NCBI RefSeq assembly: GCF_006335015.1 | Contig: NZ_VDGT01000003.1 | Span: 124,001 to 188,000, forward strand | DNA from: Streptomyces sedi | GTDB lineage: Bacteria; Actinomycetota; Actinomycetes; Streptomycetales; Streptomycetaceae | DNA length: 64,000 bases | Direction: 5' to 3' | Shown: piece by piece, positions 11,295-31,959 of the stretch | Layout: each line of letters begins with the position of its first letter | Position numbering within the stretch: the stretch's first letter is position 1 | Program-made: the position numbers and the translations under genes | The notes under the pieces: model-generated | Told to the model about the DNA's origin: nothing | The model's input: only the letters and a program-made list of their open reading frames with translations | Database searches by the model: none

Positions 11295-11309
11295 GTTGAC
11301 TGAGTTCAC
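11295..11309. promoter_or_regulatory. Inverted-repeat operator candidate, copy A
   Basis: GTTGACT-G-AGTTCAC, an imperfect copy of the GTGAACTnAGTTCAC palindrome, in the divergent region between the kinase and the giant helicase. Five bases after the right arm is a TATGCT that could act as a -10 element; copy B has TATGTC at the identical spacing. The match between the two sites is seen in the sequence; the regulatory role is inferred. Confidence 0.55.
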
Positions 11310-11410
11310 AACCCTATGCTGTGATGTGGAGCCTAAGGGAAAGTGTGGCGTACCGCGGCCGGTGGGTAGCTACCGTGGCTCCGGACCATCTCGGGAACAA
11401 GTGGGGAAAC

Positions 11411-14400
11411 GTGGACGTCTTCAAGGTGCACCAGCGGCTCATCCAGGACTACAGGGAGTACACGTCCGGGTCAGTGGTGATCGACGACCGTCGCATCGAC
11501 GCTCAGGTGTCGAAGTCGCTCGCCGATGGGGACCAGTGGCCCGACCCCTACCTCTCTCTGAACCCGAGCTTCGCGTCCGGCGGTTCGGTTGAGTCCCTCG
11601 CGCGGCCGGGGGGGCTCTTGCACCCGGTGTGCGCGGACATTTTCCGTACGGGCAAGGGCGAGCGAGGTGCCACCGTTCGCCCGGTCCACTTTCACCGGCA
11701 CCAACTGGAGGCGATCAAGGCAGCCGACTCCAGGGACTCCTTCGTCCTGACCACAGGAACCGGCTCCGGCAAGAGCCTCGGCTACATCGTGCCGATCGTC
11801 GACCGTGTGCTGCGGGACAAGGATGCCGGCGCAGCGCCCGGGATCAAGGCGATCATCGTTTACCCCATGAATGCCCTCGCCAACAGCCAAGAACGGGAGT
11901 TGGCGAAGTTCCTCACCGCTGGATTCGGCGAGGGGGGCGAGCCGGTCACCTATGCCCGCTACACCGGTCAGGAGAGGGAAGACGAGAAGGAGGCCATTCG
12001 CGAGTCCAAGCCCGACATCCTGCTCACCAACTACGTGATGCTGGAACTGATGCTCACCCGGCCCAAGGAGCGCGAGAAGCTCATCGGAGCGGCCAAGGGG
12101 CTGCGCTTCCTCGTCCTGGACGAGCTGCACACCTACCGAGGGCGGCAGGGTGCCGATGTCGCCATGCTGGTGCGGCGCGTACGCGAGGCATGCCAGTCGC
12201 CTGACCTTCAGTGTGTGGGTACGTCCGCGACGATGGCCACTGGCGGTACTCCTACCGCGCGTCGTCGCGAGGTGGCCCGGGTCGCCTCCATCCTTTTCGA
12301 CACGGACATCTCCCCGGAGCGGGTGGTCGGCGAGACCCTGGTAAGAGCGACCGGGGATGCCGTGCCCACCCCGTCCGAACTCGCGACGCGAGTGAGGGAG
12401 AACGCCCCGCCGGCGGAGCACGGGCAATTGGCCGCTGATCCGTTGGCCCGCTGGATCGAGACCACCTTCGGCTTGGTCGAGACTGAGGATGATGACGGCA
12501 GCAAGATCCTGGTGCGTGCTGAACCGGTCACCGTGGAGGCCGCCGCTCTGCGCCTGCGCTCCGAAGCGTTCGGCTTCGAGGAGGCCGACCCGGAGAAGCG
12601 CTGGTACGAGGCGTGTGCGGAGGCCATCCGAGCCACCCTCCAGGCCGGGGCGGCCGCTCGCCGCGAGGAGGGCGACCGCCCGCTGTTCGCTTTCAGGCTG
12701 CACCAGTTCCTGTCCAAGGGCGGGTCCGTCTACGTCTCCCTGGAGGGAGAGGCCGACCGCCACATCACCCGCACCTACCAGCAGCGTGTACCGAACGCCC
12801 CTCAGAAGCTGCTGCTGCCACTGTCCTTCTGCCGCGAATGCGGTCAGGAGTACCTGATGGTCGCGCGCGATCAGGATGGCGACGCCGGCATCGCCTTTCG
12901 CACGCGCGAGGACGAGGACGACGAGCAGGGGTACCTGTACATCTCGGCCGCCAACCCGTGGCCGCAGCAGGTCGGTGACGCCATCGAGCAGCGACGTTTT
13001 CCCGACAGTTGGCTTACCTTCGACGAGCGCAGGGGAGCCCCGGTACTCACCGCGAGTCGCAGGAAGCGGGCGCCGCAGCCGGTGTGGGTGCGCCCGGATG
13101 GCACCGCCGGAGGAAGCGCGAACGGTGGAATCTACGCGGCTTATCTGCCGGCCCCGTTTCTCTTCTGTCTGGAGTGCGGTGTCGGGTACGAACAAGTCAA
13201 GGAACGGGATTTTGCCAAGCTGATGACCCTCGACCAGGAGGGTCGCTCGACCGCCACCTCCGTCATCAGCGCCTCGATCGTGCGCCACCTCAAGGGTGTC
13301 CCCGGGGGGGAACTCAACGAGGACGCACGGAAGTTGCTCACCTTCGTCGACAACCGGCAGGACGCGAGTCTGCAGTCGGGGCACTTCAACGACTTCGTCA
13401 TGGTCACACAGCTGCGTGGTGCCCTTTACCGGGCGATGGTCGCGGCGGGTGACAAGGGACTGCGCTGGAAGCGGCTGGGCGAGGAAGTGGTGGCGGCGAT
13501 GGGGCTCTCCCCACACGAATACGCGGCCAAGCCCTCCGAGATCGAGGAACTCGCCGAGAGCACGCAGGAAGCGCTGGCGGCGATCGCCGAGTACCGCCTC
13601 TTCCTCGACCTGGAGCGCGGCTGGCGCGTCACCATGCCCAACCTGGAGCAGACCGGGCTGCTACGCCTGGAGTACGCGGGCCTGGAGGCAATCGCCGGTG
13701 AGGAGGGTCGGTGGCGGCGCACCGCGGGGCCGCTGCGTACGGCCACCCCCGGCGTGCGCCATCGGCTGTCGACGGTTCTCATGGACGAGTTGCGCCGTCA
13801 GCGAGCTGTGGACACGCCCTACTTCACGGAGGCCAAGTTCGCCGAACTCCGGAAGGAATCGGCGCGGCTGAACGACGCTTGGGGGATCGCCGACACGGAA
13901 GCGGCGCCGCCTCCGGCAGGCGTCGCCGTTGCCCGCGCAGGACGCCCGGGCCGTACTGGGCGCGGTCGCAGCGAGTTGAACCTCACCGGCCGTGGAGCGT
14001 TTGGTCGCCACGTCCGTAAGAGCGGCACCTTTCCTGACTGGAGCGGGGGGCTGTCCCTAGACGAGGCTCAGGACGTCATCCGCGATCTTCTTAAGGTTTT
14101 GGCGGACGGTGGAGTCCTCACGGAAGTCTCCCAGGGACGGGGCGAGGAGCCCGGTTACCAGATCAACCACACGATCATCCGCTGGCACGCCCGCGACGAT
14201 GATCACGGTGCCGTGGACCGTCTGCGCCGTACCTACCGCGACGAGCGCGGACCTCGCGTCAACGCCTTCTTCAAGCGGCTCTACCAGGACATTGCCGCCA
14301 CCTTCGCCGGTCTGCACGCCGCCGAGCACACGGCTCAGGTTCCCCCCGACATTCGACAGGAACGCGAGGACCTGTTCGGTGAGGGCACCCGGCTTCCACT

Positions 14401-16684
14401 CCTGTACTGCTCGCCGACGATGGAACTCGGCGTCGACATCAAGAGCCTCAACGCGGTCAATCTGCGTAATGTGCCGCCGACCCCCGCCAACTACGCACAG
14501 CGGTCGGGTCGCGCAGGCCGCAGCGGGCAGCCCGCGCTCGTCACCACGTACTGCGCGACCGGTAACAGCCATGACCAGTACTACTTCTCCCGACGTGCGC
14601 AGATGGTTTCCGGCGCCGTCGCACCGCCCCGGCTCGACCTGGCCAACGAGGACCTGCTCGCCTCTCACGTACATGCGATCTGGCTCGCCGAGACCCGACT
14701 CGACCTCGGTACCAGCATGGCCAGGCTGATCGAGTCCGATGGTGATCAGCCCTCGCTGGAACTGGCATCATCGGTGGCCGGGGCTATCGACGAGCCGGCC
14801 GCCCGACGCCGAGCCCTGGTGCGGACACGCACCGTCCTTGACGGCTCCGGTGATCTGCTACGTGCCACGTCCTGGTGGCACGAGCAATGGTTGGAACAGA
14901 CGGTGGAGGCCGCGCCGGGCAGCTTCCGCAGGGCCTGCGAACGCTGGCGGAACCTTTTCAGGCGGGCCCTCGAAGAGCGCGAGAGCCAGCACCGCAACAT
15001 TCTCAACCGCACCGCCACCGGTCGCTCCAAGGACCAGGCCAAGCGCCGCCGCGCCCAGGCCGAGAGTCAGCTTGCCTTGCTGCGCAACGAGCAAGGTGGC
15101 GAGCGGACCGTGATGTCGGATTTCTTCCCGTACCGCTACTTCGCCTCCGAGGGATTCCTGCCGGGCTACTCCTTCCCCCGACTGCCGCTCGCCGCCTACA
15201 TTCCGGGTACTGGCCGTACCAGCCGCGGTGGTTACGACGGCGACTATCTTCAGCGCTCCAGGTTCATCGCCATTCGAGAGTTCGGACCCGGCGCGTTGAT
15301 CTACCACGAGGGCAGCCGCTACAAGGTGGACCGGGTGCAGCTGCCGCCGGACACAGCGGGCGAGCTGACCACCGAGAGCGCGAAGGTCTGTGGACGCTGC
15401 GGTTATCTGTCCCCGGAGGAACAGCGCGAGGACGTCTGCGGCGGTTGCGGTAGCAGCCTCGGCGACGCGCGAACCGATCTGCTGCACCTACACACCGTCT
15501 TTACGCACCGCCGCGACCGGATCTCCTCCGACGAGGAGGAGCGCCAGCGCACCGGCTACAAGGTGGAGATCTCCTACCGGTTCAAGAAACACGAGGACGG
15601 CCGCGATGGATCACTGCGAGCCATGGCGCAGAACGCCTCCGGCCGTCCCCTCGCCGAGTTGGCCTACGGCGACAGCGCCACCGTCCGGCTCACCAACCTC
15701 GGCTACCGACGCTCCGTCGCCAAAGGGGAGATCGGCTTCTGGATGGACCCGGTGACGGGTGACTGGCTGGCTGGCGGTGCGGCCAAGAAAGGCGGTCGGG
15801 AGGCCCCCCAGGAACAGGAGGGGCTCGCGGACGCCGAGAACGTGAATCGCAAGATGCCGGTGATCCCGTATGTGCAGGACACCCGCAACATCCTCGTCCT
15901 TCGGTTGGCTGAACCGGTCACCTCGGACACCGCCATCACTCTCCAGTACGCCCTGGAACGCGGCATCGAAGCGGAGTTTCAACTGGAGGACGCCGAGCTG
16001 GACACCGAGGAGCTCCCGCCGGACGAGGGTCCGCGCGAGCGGCTGCTGTTCATCGAGAGCGCTGAAGGTGGCGCGGGCGTCCTCCGACGTCTGCAGGCCG
16101 AGCCCGGAGCTCTGGCTCGTGCTGCGCGCAAGGCCCTGGAGATCGCCCACTTCGACCAGTTGGGCCGGGACCGGGGAGAAGAGAAGAGTAACGGCGACCC
16201 GTGTGAGAAGGGCTGCTACGACTGTCTGCTCTCCTTCGGCAACCAGCGACACCACCGCGTTATTGACCGACAGCTGGTACGAGGACTCCTCGAAGCCTTC
16301 GCGGACGGCACGGTCGGTGCCAGTGCCCCGGGGCGCTCGCGCGATGAGCACGCCGACGTACTGCGGCAGGGGGCCGACTCCAGCCTGGAGGAACGCTTCG
16401 TCGAGTACCTGAGGTCACACGGGCATCGGCTGCCGGACCACCAGCAGGTCACAGTGCGCGAGGCCCTGTCCAAGCCGGACTTCGCTTACGACACCGGGTT
16501 TGGCCCGATCGCGATCTTCGTCGACGGCCCGCACCATGACTACGACGACATCGCACTGCGCGATGAGGAGGCGGAGGAAAGGCTCAAGGATTTCGGCTGG
16601 GAAGTGGTCCGTGTCCGCTACGACGACGACTGGGCCAAGAAGGTCGCCGAGTACCCTCAGGTGTTCGGCGAACCCCGCCGCTGA
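11411..16684 (+). CDS. Giant DEAD/DEAH helicase with DUF1998-like region and Vsr-like nuclease end
   Basis: About 1757 residues. It starts VDVFKVHQRLIQDY, the usual beginning of large defence helicases of the DruE/Lhr-like type. Helicase domain 1 has Walker A TGTGSGKS (about 114) and LDELHTY as the DExH motif (about 235). Domain 2 has GVDIKSLNAVNLRNVPPTPANY and QRSGRAGR (about 1030). A zinc ribbon (CGRCGYL and CGGCG, about 1327) and a C-terminal DUF1998-type cysteine block (CEKGCYDCLLSFGN, about 1598) follow. The last ~90 residues (KPDFAY, IAIFVDGPHHDY, FGWEVVRVRYDDDW) resemble the Vsr/DUF559 PD-(D/E)XK nuclease fold. I chose GTG at 11411; upstream in-frame codons to 11321 are not family-like. 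It heads an operon with the SNF2 helicase and adenine methylase. Confidence 0.9.
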   Translation: MDVFKVHQRLIQDYREYTSGSVVIDDRRIDAQVSKSLADGDQWPDPYLSLNPSFASGGSVESLARPGGLLHPVCADIFRTGKGERGATVRPVHFHRHQLEAIKAADSRDSFVLTTGTGSGKSLGYIVPIVDRVLRDKDAGAAPGIKAIIVYPMNALANSQERELAKFLTAGFGEGGEPVTYARYTGQEREDEKEAIRESKPDILLTNYVMLELMLTRPKEREKLIGAAKGLRFLVLDELHTYRGRQGADVAMLVRRVREACQSPDLQCVGTSATMATGGTPTARRREVARVASILFDTDISPERVVGETLVRATGDAVPTPSELATRVRENAPPAEHGQLAADPLARWIETTFGLVETEDDDGSKILVRAEPVTVEAAALRLRSEAFGFEEADPEKRWYEACAEAIRATLQAGAAARREEGDRPLFAFRLHQFLSKGGSVYVSLEGEADRHITRTYQQRVPNAPQKLLLPLSFCRECGQEYLMVARDQDGDAGIAFRTREDEDDEQGYLYISAANPWPQQVGDAIEQRRFPDSWLTFDERRGAPVLTASRRKRAPQPVWVRPDGTAGGSANGGIYAAYLPAPFLFCLECGVGYEQVKERDFAKLMTLDQEGRSTATSVISASIVRHLKGVPGGELNEDARKLLTFVDNRQDASLQSGHFNDFVMVTQLRGALYRAMVAAGDKGLRWKRLGEEVVAAMGLSPHEYAAKPSEIEELAESTQEALAAIAEYRLFLDLERGWRVTMPNLEQTGLLRLEYAGLEAIAGEEGRWRRTAGPLRTATPGVRHRLSTVLMDELRRQRAVDTPYFTEAKFAELRKESARLNDAWGIADTEAAPPPAGVAVARAGRPGRTGRGRSELNLTGRGAFGRHVRKSGTFPDWSGGLSLDEAQDVIRDLLKVLADGGVLTEVSQGRGEEPGYQINHTIIRWHARDDDHGAVDRLRRTYRDERGPRVNAFFKRLYQDIAATFAGLHAAEHTAQVPPDIRQEREDLFGEGTRLPLLYCSPTMELGVDIKSLNAVNLRNVPPTPANYAQRSGRAGRSGQPALVTTYCATGNSHDQYYFSRRAQMVSGAVAPPRLDLANEDLLASHVHAIWLAETRLDLGTSMARLIESDGDQPSLELASSVAGAIDEPAARRRALVRTRTVLDGSGDLLRATSWWHEQWLEQTVEAAPGSFRRACERWRNLFRRALEERESQHRNILNRTATGRSKDQAKRRRAQAESQLALLRNEQGGERTVMSDFFPYRYFASEGFLPGYSFPRLPLAAYIPGTGRTSRGGYDGDYLQRSRFIAIREFGPGALIYHEGSRYKVDRVQLPPDTAGELTTESAKVCGRCGYLSPEEQREDVCGGCGSSLGDARTDLLHLHTVFTHRRDRISSDEEERQRTGYKVEISYRFKKHEDGRDGSLRAMAQNASGRPLAELAYGDSATVRLTNLGYRRSVAKGEIGFWMDPVTGDWLAGGAAKKGGREAPQEQEGLADAENVNRKMPVIPYVQDTRNILVLRLAEPVTSDTAITLQYALERGIEAEFQLEDAELDTEELPPDEGPRERLLFIESAEGGAGVLRRLQAEPGALARAARKALEIAHFDQLGRDRGEEKSNGDPCEKGCYDCLLSFGNQRHHRVIDRQLVRGLLEAFADGTVGASAPGRSRDEHADVLRQGADSSLEERFVEYLRSHGHRLPDHQQVTVREALSKPDFAYDTGFGPIAIFVDGPHHDYDDIALRDEEAEERLKDFGWEVVRVRYDDDWAKKVAEYPQVFGEPRR

Positions 16685-16788
16685 CCTGGTCTCCAGGCAT
16701 ATGGGCCGACAGCTACCACTATTCGTCGGCCATCGCTCCGCTACGTTCGTGCTTCCCGTTCCCGCCCGCACTCATCCGGAAGGCCCGT

Positions 16789-19752
16789 ATGACCACCGCC
16801 GCCGCGCCGGCACCCAAGTACGCCGTCGGTTCCCTCGTCCACGCCCGGGGCCGGGAATGGGTGGTGCTCCCCGACTCGACCGCGGAGCTTCTCGTGCTGC
16901 GCCCCCTGGGCGGCGCCGATGTCGATGTAGCAGGCGTGTTGCCCGGTTTGGAGACGGTGGTGCCTGCCACGTTCGCCCCGCCCACGCCCGGTGATCTCGG
17001 CGACCAGTACACCGCCGGTCTGCTGCGTACCGCCCTGCGGATCGGCTTCAGAGCCGGGGCCGGTCCCTTCCGATCCCTCGCCTCAATCGCCGTGGATCCG
17101 CGCCCGTACCAGCTGGTGCCGTTGATGATGGCGCTGCGCCAGGACACGGTAAGGCTGCTCATCGCCGACGATGTGGGTATCGGCAAGACCGTCGAGGCGG
17201 GTCTCGTCGCGGCCGAACTGCTCGCGCAGGGTGACGCCCGTGGCCTGGTCGTTTTGTGTTCCCCAGCGCTCGCTGAGCAGTGGCGGGCCGAGTTGCAGGG
17301 CAAGTTCGGTGTCGACGCGCGCCTGGTGCTGCCTGCCACGATCGGCAGACTCGAACGCGAGACGCCTTACGGGCAGTCGGTGTTCCGCCCGGATGGTGCC
17401 TACGTCGTATCGACGGACTTCATCAAGTCGCCCCGCCACCGCGAGGACTTCCTGCGTAACTGTCCCGACATGGTGATCGTCGACGAGGCACACACTTGCG
17501 TCGCGGACTCCACTGCGCAGGCATCGGCCCGTACCTCGCAGCAACGTTATCGATTGCTGCGCGCGCTCGCCGACGACCCGGACCGCCACCTCCTCCTGGT
17601 CACCGCAACCCCGCACAGCGGTAAGGAGGAGCCCTTCCGGCGGCTGCTGGGGCTCCTCGACCCCCGTCTCGCCACCGTCAGCTTCGGTTCTCGCGCGGGG
17701 CGTGAGCTACTCGCCCAGTTCTTCGTGCAGCGCCGCCGTGCTGACATCCGTGAGGACTTCCAGGACGGGGCGCACTTCCCGTCCAGCCGGGACAGCGCCG
17801 AGGTTTCCTACACCCTGCACCGCGACTACCGTGCCCTACTCGCCGAGGTTCTCGCGTACGCCCGCGAGACGGTGCGCTCCGCCGATGGAGCGCTCCAGCA
17901 GCGGCAGCGCTGGTGGTCGACGCTGGCACTGCTGCGCACGCTGTCCTCCTCACCCGAGGCCGCTGTCCGGTCCCTGAACACCAGAGCTGGCGTCCAGGAG
18001 GCGGATACTCCCGAGGAAGCCGACCACACCGGGCAGTCGACCGTCTCGGACCCCGCCGACACGGACAGCGCGGACTCCGCCGACGAGGTCCCGGGCAGCC
18101 TGTTGCCCGTCATCACGCCCGCGGTTGAGGAAGACGGCGAGGACGTGCTCGGTGCCGAGGAGAGAACGCGTTTGGTCGCCATGGCCGAGGCTGCCCGCAG
18201 GCTCGCCGGGCCCAGCCGCGACAGCAAGCTGAAGAAGCTCGTGGCGACGGTTACCAACCTTCTCGACTCCGGCTACCGGCCGATCGTCTTCTGTCGCTAT
18301 ATCGCCACGTCCGACTACGTCGCCAAGCATCTGATGAAGGTGCTCAACAAGAAGGGTGCCGAGTATCCCGTGGGCGTCGCCTCGGTCACCGGCGAACTCT
18401 CCCCCGATATGCGCCTGAACCGGATCGCCGAACTCACTGGCACCGAAGAGAACGGTGACCCGGCTCCCGAGCGGCGTGTCCTGGTAGCCACCGACTGCCT
18501 GTCCGAGGGCGTCAACCTCCAGGAGTCCTTCGACGCCGTCATCCACTACGACCTGGCCTGGAACCCGACCCGCCACGAACAGCGAGAAGGCCGCGTTGAC
18601 CGTTTCGGGCAGCGAACCGACTCCGTGAAGGCCCTCACCCTGTACGGCGAGGACAACCCGGTCGACGACATCGTCCTGAAGGTGTTGCTGCGTAAGCACG
18701 ACCAAATCCGCCGCGCCACAGGCATCTCCGTCCCGGTGCCGCAGCAGGCGGAAAGCGCCGTGCAGGCGGTCCTTGAAGGGCTGATCCTGCGGGGCGATAC
18801 TCCCTCCTTCGAACAGGAGGAACTGTTCGAGCGGGAACGGCTGCCCGCCGCCGAGCAGTTGGAGCTGCTCTGGGAGTCTTCCGCCGAGCGCGAGAAGGCA
18901 TCTCGGTCGCTCTATGCCCAGAACCGGATCAAGAAGGAGGACGTGGCCGCCGAGGTCGCCGAGATCCGCGCCGCGCTCGGCACCAGCGAGGAAGTCAGGG
19001 ACTTCACCCGCCGCGCGCTCGGCGCGCTGCGCGGGGCGCCTGTCGACCGCAAGCAGGGCGGGTTCACCTCGCACACCGACGCCCTGCCACTGGCCCTGCG
19101 CGACGCAGTGGCCGCGGCGCTCGGGGCCCGCCATCCGCGCCCGGTCATCTTTCACGACGCCCCGAGCGCGCCGCGCGGCGAGGTGGCTCTCACCCGCACC
19201 GACCCGGTGGTGGCCGCAACTGCCCGCTTCGTCCTGGACACAGCCTTGGACGAGAAGTTTCCCGCCTGGCAGCGCCCGGCCCGCCGCTGTGGGGTGATCC
19301 GTACGAGTGCCGTACGACGGCCCACCACGATGCTTCTCGTACGGCATCGCTTTCAACTGAGCCTGCCCACCCGCGACGGCGGCGTGCGCACTCAACTTGC
19401 CGAGGACGCGCGGGTGGCAGCCTTCCGCGGCAAACCCGAGGCGCCGCAGTGGCTGCCCGAGGAGGAGGCTCTGGCCCTGCTGGAGGCGCGCGCCACCGGC
19501 AACTCCGACCCTGGCTTCGCTGCTGACCACATCGCGTCGATTCTCGATGCCCTCGACACCGGCCTGATGGATGAAGTACGACTGCGATCCAGAACAGCCG
19601 CGAAGGAGCTGGAGGCGTCGCACCACCGGGTCCGCACCGCCGCCCGCGCCCGCCTTGCCGGCCTGAAGGTCGTCCCGCAGGGCGCCCCAGACATCCTCGG
19701 TGTCTTCCACTACCGCCCGGCCGCCACAATCCAGCTGGGAGCCGACGCATGA
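16789..19752 (+). CDS. SNF2-family helicase (DrmD-like)
   Basis: A 987-residue SF2 helicase of the SNF2/HepA type. It has the RPYQLVPLM Q-motif region, Walker A ADDVGIGKTVEAG (about residues 125-137), the VDEAH box (about 230), TATPHSG motif III, and a C-terminal helicase lobe with VLVATDCLSEGVNLQ, HYDLAWNPTRHEQREGRVDRFGQ. The region after residue 650 is helical and unassigned. Architecture and the tight link to an Eco57I-type methylase resemble the DrmD-DrmMI pair of class 1 DISARM, but no DrmC phospholipase is present, so DISARM is not claimed. ATGA overlap with the downstream methylase indicates coupling. It follows the giant helicase after 104 bp with no visible promoter. Confidence 0.92.
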   Translation: MTTAAAPAPKYAVGSLVHARGREWVVLPDSTAELLVLRPLGGADVDVAGVLPGLETVVPATFAPPTPGDLGDQYTAGLLRTALRIGFRAGAGPFRSLASIAVDPRPYQLVPLMMALRQDTVRLLIADDVGIGKTVEAGLVAAELLAQGDARGLVVLCSPALAEQWRAELQGKFGVDARLVLPATIGRLERETPYGQSVFRPDGAYVVSTDFIKSPRHREDFLRNCPDMVIVDEAHTCVADSTAQASARTSQQRYRLLRALADDPDRHLLLVTATPHSGKEEPFRRLLGLLDPRLATVSFGSRAGRELLAQFFVQRRRADIREDFQDGAHFPSSRDSAEVSYTLHRDYRALLAEVLAYARETVRSADGALQQRQRWWSTLALLRTLSSSPEAAVRSLNTRAGVQEADTPEEADHTGQSTVSDPADTDSADSADEVPGSLLPVITPAVEEDGEDVLGAEERTRLVAMAEAARRLAGPSRDSKLKKLVATVTNLLDSGYRPIVFCRYIATSDYVAKHLMKVLNKKGAEYPVGVASVTGELSPDMRLNRIAELTGTEENGDPAPERRVLVATDCLSEGVNLQESFDAVIHYDLAWNPTRHEQREGRVDRFGQRTDSVKALTLYGEDNPVDDIVLKVLLRKHDQIRRATGISVPVPQQAESAVQAVLEGLILRGDTPSFEQEELFERERLPAAEQLELLWESSAEREKASRSLYAQNRIKKEDVAAEVAEIRAALGTSEEVRDFTRRALGALRGAPVDRKQGGFTSHTDALPLALRDAVAAALGARHPRPVIFHDAPSAPRGEVALTRTDPVVAATARFVLDTALDEKFPAWQRPARRCGVIRTSAVRRPTTMLLVRHRFQLSLPTRDGGVRTQLAEDARVAAFRGKPEAPQWLPEEEALALLEARATGNSDPGFAADHIASILDALDTGLMDEVRLRSRTAAKELEASHHRVRTAARARLAGLKVVPQGAPDILGVFHYRPAATIQLGADA

Positions 19753-23906: not shown

Positions 23907-23925
23907 CCCGGGAGGTTCACCCCCC

Positions 23926-23954
23926 GGCCGCCTCGCCAAAGTGGTCAGGCGGCC
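23926..23954 (+). terminator. Hairpin terminator after the methylase operon
   Basis: Perfect 8-bp arms GGCCGCCT and AGGCGGCC around a 13-nt loop, 20 bp after the methylase stop codon and preceded by a second smaller inverted repeat (GGGTGA/TTCACCC). This would separate the helicase-methylase operon from the UvrD gene. Confidence 0.6.
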
Positions 23955-24000
23955 CTGTCGCGCGGGCGTCGGGGTGCTGGCCGAAGTTGGTGACACGTGT

Positions 24001-24015
24001 GTAAACTGAGTTAAC
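24001..24015. promoter_or_regulatory. Inverted-repeat operator candidate, copy C
   Basis: GTAAACT-G-AGTTAAC, matching the shared GTGAACTnAGTTCAC palindrome at 13 of 15 positions (centre ignored) and with 6 of 7 arm bases self-complementary. It lies 36 bp before the UvrD-fusion start codon, where a promoter is expected. Confidence 0.5.
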
Positions 24016-24051
24016 GTGTGACCGGTTGATGCAACGCAAAGCGGGGTGGCA

Positions 24052-26202
24052 ATGCCGCAAATCGCGATCACCAACACCTTCTGGGAGGGCGTTGACCGGC
24101 TCGACAAACCGTCCCGCGCCCGGGTTCACAAGGCGATGGGCAAGTTCCAACGGTTGACGGTTCATCAATTGCACGTCGACAAGGGGCTGCATCTGGAGTC
24201 CGTGGTCGGTTCCCGCGATCCGCGCATGCGTACCATCCGGGTCGATGACGGACAGCGCATCGTCCTGCTTGCGCCCGACGCCGGCAGCGATGTGTTCGTC
24301 TTCGTCCATGTCGTCTCTCACGACAAGGCGTACTCCTGGGCCAAGCGGCGGCTGTACTCCGTCAACGCGGTCACTCGCTGTCTCGAAGTGCGTGATCTCA
24401 CAGCTATCGAGCAGATCACCCCGCTCTTCGCTCAGGAGGCTGAGGCCGCGCCGAAGCTCCTCTTCGCCAACTGGTCGGACACCGTGCTGCGCCATCTCGG
24501 GGTCGATGACGTCACGTTGCGCGCTGCCCGCGTGATCACTGACAAGGCGCAGTTGGAAGCGTTCGGGTCGTTGATGCCGGAGGACCAGTTCGAGGCGCTG
24601 TGGCTGCTAGCGGAGGGGTTCGACCCCGACGATGTCTACCGTGACCTTGTCGCGGCGCGGAAGGCGGTCGTCGTTGACGCTGCCGTGGAGAGCCGGGGCG
24701 GGCTGGCGGCCGCTGTCAGCCGTACGCGCAGCCGGATCACCCTCGTTGCCGGGCCCCAGGAGCTCGCCGACATTCTCGCCAAGCCCTTCGACGCCTGGCG
24801 GATCTTTCTGCACCCCGCCCAACGACGGGTTGCCTACCGGCCCGCGTACGGCGGCCCCGCCCAAGTCACCGGTGGCCCCGGCACAGGTAAGACTGTCGTC
24901 GCTCTGCATCGTGTCAAGCATCTCCTCGCGAGGGCAGCCGATACGCGCGTCCTGCTCACCACCTACACCAGCGCGCTCGCCCGCTCGTTGCGATCCGGGC
25001 TTGCCCTGCTCCTCGACCACGACCAGACGCTCCTGGAGCGGGTCACCGTCACCACGGTCGATGCCACCGCACACCGCGTTGTGCGCCAACTGCACGGTAA
25101 CCCGGGGGACGTCCTTAACGACAAGGATGAGCGGTGGCGCTGGCAGCGATTGGCTCGCAGGCTCGAACTGCCCTGGAACGATGCCTTTCTGGCCCAGGAA
25201 TACCGGCACGTGCTGCTTGCCCAGGATCTGCGTAGCCGCGAGGAGTACGAGAAGTGTCGTCGGCACGGGCGTGGCAGCAGGTTGGCCGCCAGCCAGCGGC
25301 CGCAGTTGTGGGAGGCGATGACGCTGTTCGAGGAGGAGCTCGCGCGTGACCGCGCCTGTACCTGGCTGCAGCTGTGCGCCAGGGCCGTCCGGCTGCTGCG
25401 GGACAGGCCGGGCGAGGGGCCTGGTTACGACCACGTGGTGGTGGACGAGGCGCAGGACCTTCATCCTGCCCAGTGGCGGCTGCTGCGAGCCCTGGTGCCC
25501 GAGGGGCCAGACGATCTCTTTCTCACGGGTGACCCGCACCAGCGAATCTACGACTCCCGGGTCTCGCTGCGTTCCCTCGGTATCTCCGTCGCGGGGCGTG
25601 GCGCGCGACTGCGGCTCAACTACCGCTCCACGGAGGAGATTCTGCGCTGGTCGCGCGCGCTGCTCGATGGTGAGCGCGTGGCGGACCTGACCGGCGACAC
25701 GCCGGACTCGCTCTCCGGTTACCGGTCGCTGCTGCACGGGGAGCGGCCCGTGTGTGAAGGGCACGAGACGGAGGCGGAGGAGGCGGATGCCGTTGTGCGC
25801 ACGGTGCAGGCATGGGTGGCGGCGGGGGTCGCGCCATCCGAGATCGCGGTCTGTGCCCGGTTTCACACACAGACCGCCCGGATCGCCGACCGGCTCGACC
25901 GGGTCGGGTTGCCGACGGTGCGGGTCAAGGGCGCCGAATCCGACGACGTGGCCGGGATACGAGTGTCGAGCCTGCACAGCCTGAAGGGCCTTGAGTTCCG
26001 CTGCGTGGCCGTGGCAGGGGTTACCGCGTCGGCCTTTCCGTTCCGGCCGGCGGTGACGTCGGCCGAGGTTGATCCGCTGCAGAACGCCACGGACCTCGCG
26101 GCTGAACGGTGCCTGCTGTTCGTGGCGAGTACCCGGGCGAGAGAGGCGCTGTACGTGTCGTACAGCGGACGTCCGAGCGCCTTTCTCGACGGCGTGAGGT
26201 AA
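24052..26202 (+). CDS. RelE-like domain fused to UvrD/Rep SF1 helicase
   Basis: A 716-residue protein. The first ~100 residues (AITNTFWEGVDRL, HQLHVDKG, RTIRVDDGQRIVLLAP, VFVFVHVVSHDKAYSWA) follow the short alpha/beta pattern of RelE/ParE-type toxins. After a helical linker comes an SF1 helicase: Walker A GGPGTGKTVVALHR (about 272), VVVDEAQDLHPAQW (about 462), GDPHQRIY, LNYRSTEEI, then SLHSLKGLEFRCVAV and a final FVASTRAREALYV motif VI. The ATG is chosen for the GGGG 5 nt upstream; the GTG six bases earlier is within the ribosome site. It is monocistronic, bounded by operator-like copies C and D. Probably it loads on foreign or repair-intermediate DNA; whether the RelE-like part is a nuclease is unknown. 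Confidence 0.85.
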   Translation: MPQIAITNTFWEGVDRLDKPSRARVHKAMGKFQRLTVHQLHVDKGLHLESVVGSRDPRMRTIRVDDGQRIVLLAPDAGSDVFVFVHVVSHDKAYSWAKRRLYSVNAVTRCLEVRDLTAIEQITPLFAQEAEAAPKLLFANWSDTVLRHLGVDDVTLRAARVITDKAQLEAFGSLMPEDQFEALWLLAEGFDPDDVYRDLVAARKAVVVDAAVESRGGLAAAVSRTRSRITLVAGPQELADILAKPFDAWRIFLHPAQRRVAYRPAYGGPAQVTGGPGTGKTVVALHRVKHLLARAADTRVLLTTYTSALARSLRSGLALLLDHDQTLLERVTVTTVDATAHRVVRQLHGNPGDVLNDKDERWRWQRLARRLELPWNDAFLAQEYRHVLLAQDLRSREEYEKCRRHGRGSRLAASQRPQLWEAMTLFEEELARDRACTWLQLCARAVRLLRDRPGEGPGYDHVVVDEAQDLHPAQWRLLRALVPEGPDDLFLTGDPHQRIYDSRVSLRSLGISVAGRGARLRLNYRSTEEILRWSRALLDGERVADLTGDTPDSLSGYRSLLHGERPVCEGHETEAEEADAVVRTVQAWVAAGVAPSEIAVCARFHTQTARIADRLDRVGLPTVRVKGAESDDVAGIRVSSLHSLKGLEFRCVAVAGVTASAFPFRPAVTSAEVDPLQNATDLAAERCLLFVASTRAREALYVSYSGRPSAFLDGVR

Positions 26203-26238
26203 GGGAAAGGCCCTGGATGTCGGTCCGCGCCTGGGCCT

Positions 26239-26253
26239 GTGAACTGCGTCAAT
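26239..26253. promoter_or_regulatory. Inverted-repeat operator candidate, copy D (half site)
   Basis: GTGAACT-G-CGTCAAT: the left arm is a perfect match to the shared motif, the right arm is degenerate. It lies 116 bp upstream of the HTH-methylase start, with CATAGT further on as a possible -10. It is the weakest of the four copies. Confidence 0.35.
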
Positions 26254-26368
26254 GCCTGTGTTCGGCATAGTAGTCTTCCCGACGCGTGGGAGGCGAAAAG
26301 TGGCTTGATCACGCGCCTATAGGTGGAGGGAAGTCCGCTTTCACCGAGAAACACCCAGGGAGTTGCAG

Positions 26369-28381
26369 ATGTCCACGCCTCGTGCCGTACCCGTGTCTCT
26401 GGCGGAAATCGCTCGCCTCGCGGGCGTCGGTCGGGCCGCCGTCAGCAACTGGCGACGGCGCCATCCGTCGTTTCCCGCTCGAATCGCCGGAACGGACGTC
26501 AACCCCCAGTTCTCGCTCACCGACATCGAGAGTTGGTTGCGCGACAACAAGAAGCTCAAGAAGTCCGTTGAGCGCGAGTGGCTCTGGCCCCGCTTCGAGG
26601 CGCTCGGGGGGCGTGATGAGACAGGGACGGCGGTCGCGGAGGTGGGCAGGAGGCTCGCCGGGCGGAGTGCGGCACCGGGGCCCGCGTTCCCGGAGGAGGC
26701 ATCGGCGCTCATCGAGCAGGCCGTGGACCTCGGACAACGCGAGGGAGGCTCGGGCACGTTCGCCTTTCTGCTGCGTCGCTGGCTCGACGTGCACGTCCGC
26801 CAGATCACCACGACCCCTGAGCCGCTGGCCGCCATCATGGCGGAGCTCGCCACGGGTATGACGGATGTGGAGGGCGACGTCACGGTGCTGGACCCCGCTT
26901 GCGGCACCGGCCACCTCCTCATGGCTGCGACGCGCGTGGTCGAAGAAGTGGGCGGTGGGCTGCCGAACCTGTTGGGCGACGACCGTGACCCCGTACTCGT
27001 CGCCCTTGCCGAAGCCCGACTCGGCCTCGCCTTGGATGTAGCGGAGGGACCGGCGCGCATCGACGTGCGCGAAGGAGATTCGCTGCGCGAGAACCTGTTT
27101 GCCGAAGCCCTCGCCGACATCGTCCTGTGTAACCCGCCGTTCAACGAACGGGACTGGGGATACGAGGAATTGGCCACTGACGTCCGCTGGAGCCACGGGC
27201 TGCCGCCACGCACCGAACCCGAACTCGCCTGGGTTCAGCACTGTCTGGCCAGGCTGCGGCCCGGTGGTGCGGCTGTGTTGCTGCTGCCCCCGGCCGTGGC
27301 GGCGCGAAAGGCTGGTCGACGTATCCGCAGATCGCTGTTGCGCACCGGCCAGCTGAAGGCCGTTGTCGCGCTGCCGCCGGGGTGTGCCGCGCCGCACAGC
27401 GTCTCCCTGCACCTGTGGGCGCTGCGGGCTCCCCTACCGGGTGAGGAGGCGCCCGCCGGAGGCCATCTGCGGGTAGCCGACGGTGTGTCCCGCTTTCCCC
27501 GAGATCAGGGCCGCGACTGGGCCCCAGACTGGGCGGCGATCGGCGACTTCGTGCGCGAGGCCGTCGGGCGGACGGAGCCGGCCGAGGACTCCCGCCTTGT
27601 GCGACACGTGCCCGTTATCGAGCTCCTCGACGGCGAAGTCGATCTCACCCCGGGCCGTCACGTGTCCCTCGCGGACACCGCACCCCAACTGCGTGAGTCC
27701 TGGAAGGAATTCGAGAACCTCGCCGCCCGGATGACCACGTCGGCTCGACTGCTTGCGGCACTCGAACTGACCTCTGCGGTACAGGACTCGCCGACGGCGA
27801 CCACCATCGCGGAACTGGCGCGAGCAGGGGCGCTCACCTTGCGTGGCGGCCAACAACCTCCGGAGACGGCGGTCCGCACCGGTCCGCCGTCCGCTGACGA
27901 CGTTCCACTTCTGACGGTTCCCGACCTTCTGACAGGCGGCGATCCCAGGGGGAGTCTCGCTGCCGGCGACCCCGCGGTGCGCGAGGCCGTGATTGTTGAA
28001 CCCGGTGACATCGTGATGGTGGGGGTGGCGCGTGCGTTCTCTGCCTGGGTCCACGAAGGACCGCCGACCGCGTTGGGGCCTCAACTGCATGCCTTGCGGG
28101 TGCAGCCCGAACAGCTCGATGCCTGGTTCCTCGCCGGTTCGCTGCGAGCCCCGGCCAACGCTCGGCAGGCTGGGACGCACGCGACGAGCTCCTCCCGCAT
28201 TGATGTGCGGCGACTGCACGTTCGTCAGGTGCCGCTTCGTGAACAGCGCCGCTATGGTGAGGCGTTCCGGGAGCTCGTCGCATTCGAACAGCTGGTGCGC
28301 CGCACGGCTGAGCTGAGTGCGGGCCTCGTCCACGATCTGGGTGACGAACTGGCTGCCGGGCGGTTGGCGGGCGGTGTGTAG
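26369..28381 (+). CDS. HTH-N6-adenine methylase with specificity-like tail
   Basis: A 670-residue protein. Residues ~5-60 form a helix-turn-helix (PVSLAEIARLAGVGRAAVSNWRRR, then TDIESWLRDNKK). The methylase core has motif I LDPACGTGHLLMAA (about 173), GDDRDPVLVALAEARL and motif IV NPPFNERDWGY (about 254), the type I HsdM order. The C-terminal ~220 residues (PDLLTGG, VEPGDIVMVGV, SSSRIDVRRLHVRQVPL) resemble a half-specificity (HsdS-like) domain, so it is an M/S fusion. No HsdR is adjacent. ATG is chosen for AGGGAG 6 nt upstream. The HTH makes it a candidate for binding DNA in a regulatory way as well as methylating it. Confidence 0.88.
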   Translation: MSTPRAVPVSLAEIARLAGVGRAAVSNWRRRHPSFPARIAGTDVNPQFSLTDIESWLRDNKKLKKSVEREWLWPRFEALGGRDETGTAVAEVGRRLAGRSAAPGPAFPEEASALIEQAVDLGQREGGSGTFAFLLRRWLDVHVRQITTTPEPLAAIMAELATGMTDVEGDVTVLDPACGTGHLLMAATRVVEEVGGGLPNLLGDDRDPVLVALAEARLGLALDVAEGPARIDVREGDSLRENLFAEALADIVLCNPPFNERDWGYEELATDVRWSHGLPPRTEPELAWVQHCLARLRPGGAAVLLLPPAVAARKAGRRIRRSLLRTGQLKAVVALPPGCAAPHSVSLHLWALRAPLPGEEAPAGGHLRVADGVSRFPRDQGRDWAPDWAAIGDFVREAVGRTEPAEDSRLVRHVPVIELLDGEVDLTPGRHVSLADTAPQLRESWKEFENLAARMTTSARLLAALELTSAVQDSPTATTIAELARAGALTLRGGQQPPETAVRTGPPSADDVPLLTVPDLLTGGDPRGSLAAGDPAVREAVIVEPGDIVMVGVARAFSAWVHEGPPTALGPQLHALRVQPEQLDAWFLAGSLRAPANARQAGTHATSSSRIDVRRLHVRQVPLREQRRYGEAFRELVAFEQLVRRTAELSAGLVHDLGDELAAGRLAGGV

Positions 28382-28439
28382 AGCGCCCGGGCGGAGGACC
28401 GCTGTGGCGAGGGGAGCTTCTTTTGGCGCTGTCGCGTGA

Positions 28440-29984
28440 TCAGGTTCGCCGCTCGCTTCGGCCGCCCGAGCCCGCGTGCCGGGCCGAGAGCTGGTCATCG
28501 ACCTCGCGGCGCACCAAGTCGACTTGAATGGCGTATTCGCGCGGCAGGCTCGATGCCGTACGTCCTGCGTCGTCTACCGCGTTGAAGGCGGCATCCAGCT
28601 CGCCGAAGGCGAGGCGGCATTCAGCCAGCCGGAGCCGGACTATCGCGCGCTCAGCCCGTTCGGCGGGACCGTCGCCGTGCAGGAGAGCGTCGTCAATGAC
28701 GTGGTAGTGACGGGCCGCGGAGCCGAAGTCCCCGGTCAGTCGGAGTCCGTCCGCTGCTCCCCGCCACACACGACACACCAGTGGGCGGCGCGCTCCCCAC
28801 TCCGCGCGCACGCGTTGCGCCAATTCACGCAGGCGGTTGGCCGCGGCTCCCGGGTCGCCGAGGGCGATCTCCGACTCGGCCTGCGCGCAGAGCTGTTCCG
28901 TTGCGTGAGCGTCCAGCCATTCCTCATCCTCTGACACCGAAGAGGCGACGGACCGGGGGGCGGGAGCGTCACGCGTGCGTGAGACCCGGTCCGTGGGCCG
29001 GCGGAGTGGGGTCGTGGGGTCCGGGTAGGTGCGCGGCCGGGGCTCGGGGGCGCCGGGTTGAGGGCCGAGCGGAGTGAGGACCGCCAGTACCTCGTCGACG
29101 GGCGGACGCTGTCCGGGCTGCTTGGCCAACATGCGAACCACCAGGTTGTCGATCGGCGCGGGAATGCCCGCGGCGTACACGCTCGGCGGTAGGGGCTCCT
29201 CATAGAGGTGCCTTTCGGTCAGTCCGGAGTTCGCACCGAGCGGGAACGGTGGGCGTCCGGTGAGCAGTTCGTAGAAGACGCACCCGAAGCAATACACGTC
29301 CGTACGCGCGGTTGGCTCGCGTTCCAGGAGCTGCTCGGGGGCCAGGTAGCCGCGGGTGCCCAGCGTGGAGCCGTGTGCCGTGTATCGGGTGGCGTCGGCC
29401 CGCAGTGGCTTGGCGATGCCGAAGTCGATGAGAACGACTGCCCCTTCGTCGTCGATCATGATGTTGGGAGGTTTGAGGTCCCGGTGCACGACAGGCAATG
29501 TATGTGCGCAAGCCAGTGCTTCCGCCACCTGCACGGCAACGGCGATCGCCGTTGCCAGCGGCAGCGGCGCGTGCTCGTCCAGGAAGGTACGCAGACTGAC
29601 GCCGGTCACCAGTTGCATGGCGATGTACGGCACACCCCGATGCGATCCGCTGGTGTACAGCTTCGTGATACCAGGGTGATCAAGTGTGCTCAACAGCGTG
29701 GCCTCGCGTCGGAACCGAGCACCCCTTACGGCGAGTTCGGTCGCTCTCTCCTCCGAGTCCAAGGCATACAGAGCTTCGGAGTCGTAGCGTAGGAACTTCA
29801 CCGCGACCTCACGCCCCGTGGGAGCCTCGTGCCTCTCAGGATGCTCGTGGCCCGGGAAGGCTTCATGGGCACGCCAGACGTGGGCCATCCCGCCCTTGCC
29901 GAGCGACTCTGTCAGCTCGTAGCGCCCGGCGACCAGATCACCCGCGCCGGGCTTGTAGATCTCCGCGTATGGATCCGCGTTCAC
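28440..29984 (-). CDS. Ser/Thr protein kinase with TPR-like C-terminal domain
   Basis: A 514-residue soluble kinase. The kinase domain (about residues 20-300) shows LGKGGMAHVW, VAVKFL lysine, HRDLKPPN, VLIDFGIAK, and GTRGYLAPEQL; the segment GHEHPERHEAPTG is an insertion in the N-lobe. A Pro/Arg-rich linker leads to a helical C-terminus with TPR-like pairs (LGDPGAAANRLRELAQRV, FGELDAAFNAVDDAG). There is no transmembrane helix. The GTG start at 29984 is favoured by AAGGAG 9 nt upstream; ATG at 30014 is an alternative. It is divergent from the pPIWI_RE operon with an inverted repeat (copy B) between them, mirroring the arrangement of the first kinase. Confidence 0.92.
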   Translation of the reverse strand: MNADPYAEIYKPGAGDLVAGRYELTESLGKGGMAHVWRAHEAFPGHEHPERHEAPTGREVAVKFLRYDSEALYALDSEERATELAVRGARFRREATLLSTLDHPGITKLYTSGSHRGVPYIAMQLVTGVSLRTFLDEHAPLPLATAIAVAVQVAEALACAHTLPVVHRDLKPPNIMIDDEGAVVLIDFGIAKPLRADATRYTAHGSTLGTRGYLAPEQLLEREPTARTDVYCFGCVFYELLTGRPPFPLGANSGLTERHLYEEPLPPSVYAAGIPAPIDNLVVRMLAKQPGQRPPVDEVLAVLTPLGPQPGAPEPRPRTYPDPTTPLRRPTDRVSRTRDAPAPRSVASSVSEDEEWLDAHATEQLCAQAESEIALGDPGAAANRLRELAQRVRAEWGARRPLVCRVWRGAADGLRLTGDFGSAARHYHVIDDALLHGDGPAERAERAIVRLRLAECRLAFGELDAAFNAVDDAGRTASSLPREYAIQVDLVRREVDDQLSARHAGSGGRSERRT

Positions 29985-30058
29985 GCCACGCCGCTCCTTC
30001 GCCTCCCGCGTCATTCGGCACACAGCGTAGCGTGAATTGGCCAATCCGCGTGACGTTC

Positions 30059-30073
30059 GTGGACTCAGTTCAC
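30059..30073. promoter_or_regulatory. Inverted-repeat operator candidate, copy B
   Basis: GTGGACT-C-AGTTCAC, the best copy: 6 of 7 arm bases pair. Five bases after the right arm lies TATGTC, at the same spacing as TATGCT in copy A. It lies between the second kinase and the pPIWI_RE operon and could control both. Confidence 0.6.
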
Positions 30074-30173
30074 AAAGTTATGTCATGCTGAGGTCGTGTC
30101 CGGGCATCGTGTGCGAGTGTCGTCGACGGTCCTGGACGTCCTCCTGTCCATGCCGCCCTCCACGGAGGTCATC

Positions 30174-31943: not shown

Positions 31944-31959
31944 GGAGGTACTCCGGATT

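What the first reader, a model, noticed from the sequence alone, without database searches (positions are those of the whole stretch)
11295..30073. A shared inverted repeat marks four transcription units of the defence block
Seen: GTTGACTGAGTTCAC (11295-11309), GTAAACTGAGTTAAC (24001-24015), GTGAACTGCGTCAAT (26239-26253) and GTGGACTCAGTTCAC (30059-30073) fit a GTGAACTnAGTTCAC palindrome. In two of them (copies A and B) a TATG hexamer follows the right arm after exactly 5 bases. All four sites lie in promoter positions before the helicase operon, the UvrD fusion, the HTH-methylase and the pPIWI_RE operon; A and B lie between divergent kinase and effector genes. I saw no copy before ApeA, McrBC or Wadjet. 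Inference: one regulator, perhaps the HTH-methylase itself or an outside factor, controls all these units together, making them one regulon.
Basis: partly seen in the sequence, partly recalled or inferred. Interest (0 to 1): 0.85.

Follow-up and report, generated by a model that had tools for sequence, protein, structure and literature searches.

The report
Methylase-linked operator shared by defence operons
Four anti-phage gene units in this soil-bacterium island carry the same short control sequence in their promoters, and comparison with relatives suggests that it is the docking site of the island's own DNA-methylase-like protein, which would make one enzyme-like protein the common switch of several different defence systems.

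Summary
The four sites are real and are the four best matches in the 64-kb window to a matrix trained only on other genomes (24.3, 24.1, 23.7, 16.2; next 9.5). The operator form GTGAACWNAGTCAAY occurs at 45 places in 199 genomes of the genus: in 22 of 24 genomes with an orthologue of the window's HTH-methylase and in 2 of 175 others. Sites recur before the same genes in orthologous islands: kinase|DruE-like helicase, UvrD, HTH-methylase, kinase|pPIWI_RE, and before DISARM drmAB and GmrSD genes in related islands. Unlinked pPIWI_RE homologues (18) and 28 other UvrD homologues lack them. The best regulator candidate is the HTH-methylase: homologues with recognition helix GVGRAAV have the site upstream (43 of 45), six of six with GVTRATV share another element. 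The catalytic Asn is replaced in 25 of 51 homologues while the helix stays. DNA binding and the sign of control are inferred, not shown. HTH-methylase autoregulation is known in type II restriction; a multi-system defence regulon run by an HsdM-like one appears new.

The parts
11295..11309 (.). Site A, GTTGACTGAGTTCAC, between kinase A (minus) and the DruE-like helicase operon (plus)
   Evidence: orthologous sites in G022, S. gardneri L250 and S. zinciresistens L251, G117 and G003
24001..24015 (.). Site C, GTAAACTGAGTTAAC, before the UvrD fusion gene
   Evidence: orthologous sites GTAAACTCAGTCAAC in G022 and L249
26239..26253 (.). Site M, GTGAACTGCGTCAAT, before the HTH-methylase gene; the position best conserved across the family
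30059..30073 (.). Site B, GTGGACTCAGTTCAC, between kinase B (minus) and the pPIWI_RE operon (plus)
26369..28381 (+). HTH-methylase, proposed regulator: N-terminal HTH, HsdM-like N6-adenine methyltransferase with DPACGTG and NPPF motifs, C-terminal half-specificity-like region and long helix
26390..26545 (+). HTH region (about residues 8-59) of the methylase; AGVGRAAVSNWRRR invariant in 20 of 20 aligned orthologues
10201..11172 (-). Kinase A (Ser/Thr protein kinase), divergent from the helicase operon
11321..16684 (+). DruE-like helicase (the mechanical GTG start lies 11 bases from site A; the true start is probably downstream)
16789..19752 (+). SNF2-type helicase, DpdE/DrmD-like
19749..23906 (+). 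DrmMI / type IIG-like DNA methyltransferase
24046..26202 (+). UvrD-helicase fusion (the RelE-like N terminus is a recalled resemblance, no family match obtained)
28440..30044 (-). Kinase B (Ser/Thr protein kinase), divergent from the pPIWI_RE operon
30096..31943 (+). PprPDDEXK nuclease, first gene of the pPIWI_RE operon
31144..33228 (+). pPIWI_RE REase/Y-domain protein (mechanical ORF, true start later)
33095..36985 (+). PprDinG helicase of the pPIWI_RE operon
37066..40131 (+). pPIWI_RE PIWI protein

Best explanation
The 15-bp element is an operator made of two inverted half-sites (GTGAAC / GTtgAC type) around a 3-base centre. The N-terminal helix-turn-helix of the HTH-methylase binds it, probably as a dimer. 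The protein controls its own promoter and the promoters of the neighbouring defence units (kinase A | DruE-like/SNF2/methylase operon, UvrD fusion, kinase B | pPIWI_RE operon), so the block is one regulon. The element lies over or close upstream of the presumed core promoter, so the simplest action is repression by blocking RNA polymerase. Induction would follow when phage DNA, a DNA mimic or loss of S-adenosylmethionine pulls the methyltransferase part off. Shown by sequence: the sites, their conservation, their restriction to methylase-bearing islands, and the co-variation of recognition helix and operator. Inferred: direct binding, dimerisation, repression, and the inducing signal.
For: Window: the four sites are the top four hits of a matrix trained without them, although two training 15-mers from other species equal window sites A (reverse complement) and B. 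Specificity: GTGAACWNAGTCAAY in 22 of 24 genomes with the orthologue and 2 of 175 without, reversed control 2 places (Fisher p 7e-25). Orthologous retention: pPIWI_RE first gene, site with up to 1 mismatch in 8 of 11 methylase-linked against 0 of 18 unlinked; UvrD, 2 of 2 at the window's arrangement against 0 of 28 others fetched; helicase and UvrD sites in G022, L249-L251, G117, G003; nine named loci with the site between a kinase B homologue and a pPIWI_RE first-gene homologue (two of the nine are 99.96% identical). Footprint: mean majority-base fraction 0.91-0.97 at site columns against 0.46-0.65 in the flanks (rows were aligned on the site). Named set: 62 of 79 homologues with the exact site and 67 of 79 with up to 1 mismatch, against 12 and 19 of 800 random stretches of the same loci, which may include true sites. 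Regulator identity: 43 of 45 GVGRAAV homologues have the site (up to 1 mismatch, 320 bp); 6 of 6 GVTRATV homologues lack it and share GAAAGCnyCGTCmAA; the exact second element occurs at 15 places in 199 genomes, 10 of them 119-128 bp before a GVTRATV helix. The helix is invariant in 20 of 20 while the catalytic Asn is not. Domains: HsdM-like fold with an HTH_17-like N terminus.
Against: No binding, footprint or expression data. The HTH is only a sub-threshold Pfam match (HTH_17, E 0.0007, 20.3 bits against a cut-off of 27). 12 of 79 named homologues with the same or a nearly identical helix lack the site upstream; 10 of the 12 are from other genera, 2 from Streptomyces. Two genomes have the exact motif without an island-type orthologue: in G030 it is inside a predicted ORF; in G053 it looks promoter-like but also falls under a predicted ORF. 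Seven of 73 matrix hits fall deep inside predicted ORFs, some of which look like wrong-strand or over-long calls. The matrix was trained partly on the same islands, and some named loci are the same strains as G handles, so those tests are not fully independent. The -10-like sequence is 8-9 bases after the methylase site in 6 of 9 aligned promoters but 17-18 in the window itself and L248, and absent in L250, so the promoter geometry is not settled. The sign of control is untested.
Confidence: 0.78

Rival explanations
1. The element is the operator of an outside regulator (a host factor such as LexA or another global regulator), and the HTH-methylase is just one more target.
For: Operators of global regulators also lie in promoters; GAAC...GTTC resembles the Streptomyces SOS box tCGAAC-N4-GNNCGa (PMC9380542, passages).
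Against: Spacing is 3, not 4, and the outer bases differ. An outside regulator should have sites in methylase-free genomes, yet the exact form occurs in 2 of 175. Homologues of the targets without the methylase lack the site. A change of the methylase's helix goes with a change of the element.
Confidence: 0.1
2. The HTH-methylase binds the sites but activates, for instance MerR-like from within the promoter spacer.
For: The HTH is closest to HTH_17, and a weak PDB match is an AlpA-family phage regulator (E 0.13). The site ends 8-9 bases before a -10-like TAGCCT in 6 of 9 aligned methylase promoters.
Against: Distance to the -10-like element varies between units and species: 8-9 or 17-18 bases in methylase promoters, 9-13 in pPIWI_RE promoters, unlike the fixed geometry expected of MerR-type activators (recalled). 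Published HTH-methylases repress their own genes (PMC3874152, passages).
Confidence: 0.22
3. The elements are merely conserved -35/-10 promoter sequences, not operators.
For: They overlap the presumed -35 region.
Against: Two-fold symmetry is kept with changes on both sides (GTGAAC, GTTGAC, GTAAAC, GTGGAC half-sites). The site is far better conserved than its flanks. Around core paralogues (834 kb) there are 0 further sites by pattern and 1 by matrix.
Confidence: 0.05
4. The palindromes are chance matches.
Confidence: 0.01

Closest known systems
Type II methyltransferases that repress their own gene through an N-terminal HTH (EcoRII, SsoII, Ecl18kI; review PMC3874152, passages only)
   Same: Methyltransferase with an N-terminal HTH and an operator overlapping its own promoter
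   Different: Those named are type II enzymes (cytosine-5 type: recalled); here an HsdM-like adenine-type protein, with sites also before several unrelated defence operons
RptR, repressor of a type I R-M / DarTG2 island in E. coli (PMC12255303, abstract and Discussion)
   Same: Palindromic operators at a defence-island promoter, conserved with the regulator across genomes
   Different: RptR is a 9-kDa single-domain protein, its minimal site is TAGCTA, and it was shown to control the one promoter of its island
BrxR / CapW-type WYL regulators of BREX and CBASS (BrxR: listing and start of abstract of PMC9122589; rest recalled)
   Same: Dedicated regulators of defence operons
   Different: No WYL match in the window proteins scanned
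MADS (mad1 HTH regulator, mad2 methyltransferase; roles recalled, names from PADLOC and NCBIfam)
   Same: HTH + N6-methyltransferase + kinase in a defence locus; PADLOC mad2 1.7e-19, mad1 0.00041
   Different: HTH and methylase are fused here; the NCBIfam MAD2 score is 28 bits against a cut-off of 720
DISARM class 1
   Same: Related islands: DrmD, DrmA and DrmB in G136 and DrmMI in G009, with a site between UvrD and drmA
   Different: The window itself has only DrmMI-like and DpdE/DrmD-like genes

Membership tests
HTH-methyltransferase autoregulators of R-M systems | N-terminal HTH fused to a DNA methyltransferase | tested here: met
   (HTH_17 below Pfam cut-off; helices at residues 11-18 and 22-31 in the model)
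HTH-methyltransferase autoregulators of R-M systems | Operator overlapping the methyltransferase's own promoter | tested here: inconclusive
   A conserved element stands before the gene; transcription start not mapped and distance to the -10-like sequence varies
HTH-methyltransferase autoregulators of R-M systems | Type II (cytosine-5) methyltransferase | tested here: not met
   HsdM-like N6-adenine type, NPPF motif
HTH-methyltransferase autoregulators of R-M systems | Represses its own transcription | not testable with these tools
   Needs a bench assay
RptR-type repressors | Small single-domain protein, TAGCTA site | tested here: not met
   670-aa multi-domain protein, 15-bp site
WYL regulators (BrxR/CapW) | WYL domain | tested here: not met
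   No WYL match among the nine window proteins or the seven
MADS | MAD2-family methyltransferase at the curated score | tested here: not met
   28 bits against 720
LexA SOS box | tCGAAC-N4-GNNCGa | tested here: not met
   Three-base centre, different outer bases; SOS-like matches in the window 7 against 3.14 expected (5 of 100 shuffles reach 7), none at the four sites
pPIWI_RE three-gene island | REase protein, DinG helicase, pPIWI_RE | tested here: met
DISARM class 1 (window) | drmA and drmB present | tested here: not met
   No DrmB match, and DrmA models only as weaker hits of the two helicases, in the lists shown for nine proteins (capped at 25 rows for five of them); none among nine further proteins at 1e-15
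DISARM class 1 (related islands) | DrmD, DrmMI, DrmA, DrmB | tested here: met
   DrmD 1418, DrmA 973, DrmB 236 bits (G136); DrmMI 1739 bits (G009)

The most novel reading that the evidence does not exclude
A family of methyltransferase-derived transcription regulators governs whole multi-system defence islands in actinomycetes. Each lineage has its own recognition helix and matching operator. The HsdM-like body has become the sensor of infection (loss of SAM, DNA mimics, or titration by unmodified phage DNA), so that attack on the methyltransferase, a known phage counter-move, itself switches on DISARM, pPIWI_RE, DruE-type and GmrSD weapons together. In the widespread Streptomyces core paralogue (catalytic NPPF changed to HPPF) the enzyme has become a pure regulator.
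Probability: 0.3. Interest if true: 0.9.

Novelty: new variant of a known kind. Interest (0 to 1): 0.74.

Why it matters
How bacteria co-ordinate many defence systems is largely open. Here one recognisable protein with one recognisable operator appears to tie several unrelated systems (DISARM, pPIWI_RE, a DruE/SNF2/methylase operon, GmrSD, kinases) into one regulon across many Streptomyces and some other actinomycetes. The operator gives a search string that finds further regulon members without prior annotation. Replacement of the catalytic residue in whole branches of the family under a constant recognition helix makes 'methyltransferase turned regulator' directly testable with two proteins and two operators.

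Tried and rejected
With up to 1 mismatch it has 45 places in 36 of 199 genomes, none exact, against 14 places for the reversed control, and many are not near defence genes. GTGAACNNNGTCAAY: too loose, 196 of 199 genomes. GTGNACTNAGTNCAC: 9 of 24 methylase genomes against 14 of 175 others; the 23 hits include an apparently unrelated element (GTGGACTCAGTACAC type) in 11 genomes, and the G009 hit belongs to that element, not to the island. LexA box: rejected on spacing. 'TATG after 5 bases' as part of the motif: not conserved. The idea that all UvrD homologues carry the site: rejected, 0 of the 28 fetched besides the window and G022; one of these 28, L158, sits downstream of its methylase. Literature searches for this regulon; nothing in the listings shown described it. 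The listings are capped and the library holds open-licence papers only, so this is weak evidence of absence. The helicase protein search failed and was not repeated; helicase-site orthologues come instead.
Full report
What is there. The four 15-mers are at the stated places. Site A (11295) lies between kinase A and a helicase operon (DruE-like, SNF2 of DpdE/DrmD type, DrmMI/type IIG-like methyltransferase). Site C (24001) lies before a UvrD fusion gene. Site M (26239) lies before an HTH-methylase. Site B (30059) lies between kinase B and a pPIWI_RE operon. A matrix trained on sites of other genomes only ranks exactly these four first in the window, at 24.3, 24.1, 23.7 and 16.2; the next hit is 9.5 and the best of 60 null windows is 20.0.

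Is it kept elsewhere? A search of 199 genomes of the genus (the own genome included) gave full-length orthologues of the HTH-methylase in 24 (identity at least 45% in the search table, aligned from residue 8 or earlier; the set was written down, before the test). The strict operator form GTGAACWNAGTCAAY was found at 45 places in 24 genomes: 22 of those 24 orthologue genomes and 2 of the 175 others; the reversed control had 2 places (Fisher p 7e-25). Of the 43 places in orthologue genomes, 38 are on a methylase contig within about 50 kb and 5 are on other contigs of draft assemblies. The two orthologue genomes without an exact match, G039 and G087, have weaker sites by matrix, at the kinase|pPIWI_RE promoter in both and before the methylase in G087. 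A looser form, GTGAACNNNGTCAAY, is found in 196 of 199 genomes and is not specific.

Same genes, same place. The first gene of the pPIWI_RE operon was found in 29 of 199 genomes. In 11 it is linked to the HTH-methylase, and 8 of these 11 have the palindrome with at most one mismatch directly upstream; the 18 unlinked cases have none. Of 30 UvrD homologues fetched out of a longer list, the two at the same place as in the window have the site and the other 28 do not. More distant UvrD genes inside DISARM-type islands, which were not among those 30, do have it, for example in G136, G009, G178 and G131. Site A has orthologues in G022, S. gardneri and S. zinciresistens, G117 and G003. Aligned on the site, the mean majority-base fraction is 0.91-0.97 in site columns against 0.46-0.65 in the flanks for the four units.

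A named set. A scan of genome contigs with the methylase alignment kept the best 80 of 419 loci, from Streptomyces, Actinacidiphila, Kitasatospora, Nocardia, Umezawaea, Actinoplanes, Actinomadura, Nonomuraea and others. In 79 the HTH could be placed (one, L256, could not). Of these 79, 62 have an exact site and 67 a site with up to one mismatch within 350 bp upstream, against 12 and 19 of 800 random 350-bp stretches of the same loci. In the 30 island-type loci (494 kb) there are 13 further sites: 12 stand before the same units and one is inside the methylase coding region. Nine of the 12 lie between a kinase B homologue and a pPIWI_RE first-gene homologue, checked by tblastn (two of these nine loci are 99.96% identical). 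In 50 loci of the more distant core paralogue (834 kb) there are none outside its own promoter; reversed controls gave 0 and 0. Some of these strains are also among the G handles (for example L263 and L265), so this set is not fully independent.

How large is the regulon? In fetched stretches around the methylase, or on contigs with linked sites, from 23 other genomes (743 kb) the matrix gives 73 hits of at least 15, one of them counted twice because two stretches overlap. 67 of 73 have an ORF start within 400 bp and 7 lie deep inside predicted ORFs; the core-paralogue neighbourhoods have 1 hit in 834 kb (the matrix was trained partly on these islands). The G136 and G009 islands are class 1 DISARM (DrmD, DrmA, DrmB scanned in G136, DrmMI in G009), with GmrSD, a large helicase with an MTES_1575 nuclease domain, kinases and UvrD. 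Sites stand between UvrD and drmA, before GmrSD, before the large helicase and before the methylase. G085 also has a site before a gene 69% identical to the G136 drmA. In G172 two sites lie between the methylase and a divergent 1923-aa helicase; in G107 two sites lie between it and a divergent 767-aa PolyA_pol/HD protein. Of the window's genes, the methylase is the only one I found in all of these arrangements.

Who binds? Of 52 methylase homologues examined, 45 have the recognition helix GVGRAAVSNW and 43 of these carry GTGAACnnnGTCAAY or the palindrome with up to one mismatch within 320 bp upstream. Six have GVTRATVSNW and none carries it. One has GVGRATVGDW and a one-mismatch site. The six share a different element at a similar position, GAAAGCnyCGTCmAA. 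Searched genome-wide as TGAAAGCNYCGTCAA, this second element occurs at 15 places in 14 of 199 genomes. Ten lie 119-128 bp before a GVTRATVSNW helix; by coordinates three more lie near such a methylase or its UvrD gene, and two are unassigned. Operator and recognition helix thus change together, which points to the methylase itself. In the 20-sequence alignment the block A18-R31 is invariant. The catalytic Asn of motif IV is replaced in 4 of 24 island proteins (HPPF, DPPS, TPPS, YPPT; two more have NPPS), in 21 of 21 core paralogues (HPPF or HPPY) and in 0 of 6 GVTRATV proteins (one of the 52, L212, was too short). Asp can replace Asn in active enzymes (recalled), so the DPPS case is uncertain. 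The regulator part is therefore under stronger constraint than catalysis, mainly because of the core branch.

What the protein looks like. The AlphaFold model (pLDDT 83.9, pTM 0.64) shows an HTH region, a helical domain, an HsdM-like catalytic domain, a half-specificity-like region and a long C-terminal helix (the last two read by me from secondary structure and a weak PADLOC specificity match at residues 510-640). Nearest solved structures are adenine methyltransferases of type I kind (PacII, EcoR124, and a Vibrio enzyme bound to the DNA mimic Ocr). The HTH is a sub-threshold HTH_17 match.

How it probably works. The element lies at or just upstream of the presumed core promoter. A -10-like TAGCCT follows 8-9 bases after it in 6 of 9 aligned methylase promoters, TAGTCT 17-18 bases after it in the window and L248, neither in L250; CATGCT follows 9-13 bases after it in 11 of 14 aligned pPIWI_RE promoters (-10 assignment is mine). 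A dimer bound there would block RNA polymerase, and in the divergent A and B regions could act on kinase and effector at once. The published precedent is repression of type II methyltransferase genes by their own N-terminal HTH (PMC3874152, passages). The inducing signal is speculation; SAM depletion, DNA mimics and titration by unmodified phage DNA are the natural candidates. Activation, MerR-like or other, is the main rival on sign.

Novelty. HTH-methylase autoregulation and dedicated island repressors (RptR, PMC12255303, abstract and Discussion read) are known. A single HsdM-like protein with operators before several unrelated defence systems, with helix/operator co-variation and replacement of the catalytic residue in a whole branch, was not found in the listings of the searches made. 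[quoted passage not shown]

One membership row (operator overlapping own promoter) was lowered to inconclusive.

Noticed in passing
L080-L085, L199-L210, L213-L215; L278-L327: A core paralogue of the HTH-methylase with HPPF/HPPY in place of NPPF (21 of 21 aligned) is common in Streptomyces. Most have an autoregulatory-looking GTGAACCGAGTCAAC, often followed by a third half-site GTTCAC, with almost no other sites nearby (0 by pattern, 1 by matrix in 50 loci).
   Followed up: partly
L195, L196, L211, L216-L218, L332-L346: A second HTH-methylase lineage (helix GVTRATVSNW, motif NPPY) has its own element GAAAGCnyCGTCmAA; where the neighbourhood was read (L195, L196) a second methylase-like gene, a 1060-aa gene, a kinase and a UvrD gene follow. 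It is probably a parallel regulon.
   Followed up: partly
L086-L090, L092-L095, L097, L099: An apparently unrelated element of GTGGACTCAGTACAC type with similar flanks (GCGTTAACAG-AC-TGAACGA) recurs in 11 Streptomyces genomes, mostly between genes of about 300 and 420-450 aa.
   Followed up: no
L161-L163 (G136), L166-L167 (G009): Large class 1 DISARM islands with GmrSD, kinases, a 2000-aa helicase with an MTES_1575 nuclease domain and genes without a Pfam match (for example an 800-aa protein at L162:5154-7556), several of them marked by the operator.
   Followed up: partly
L328:12476 (G053): One exact operator with a promoter-like downstream sequence in a genome without an island-type methylase; none of the genes around it resembles a window protein.
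   Followed up: partly
window 8433-42769: The defence block has a third-codon-position G+C of about 0.70-0.84 against mostly 0.86-0.99 in the neighbouring genes, as expected of acquired DNA.
   Followed up: no
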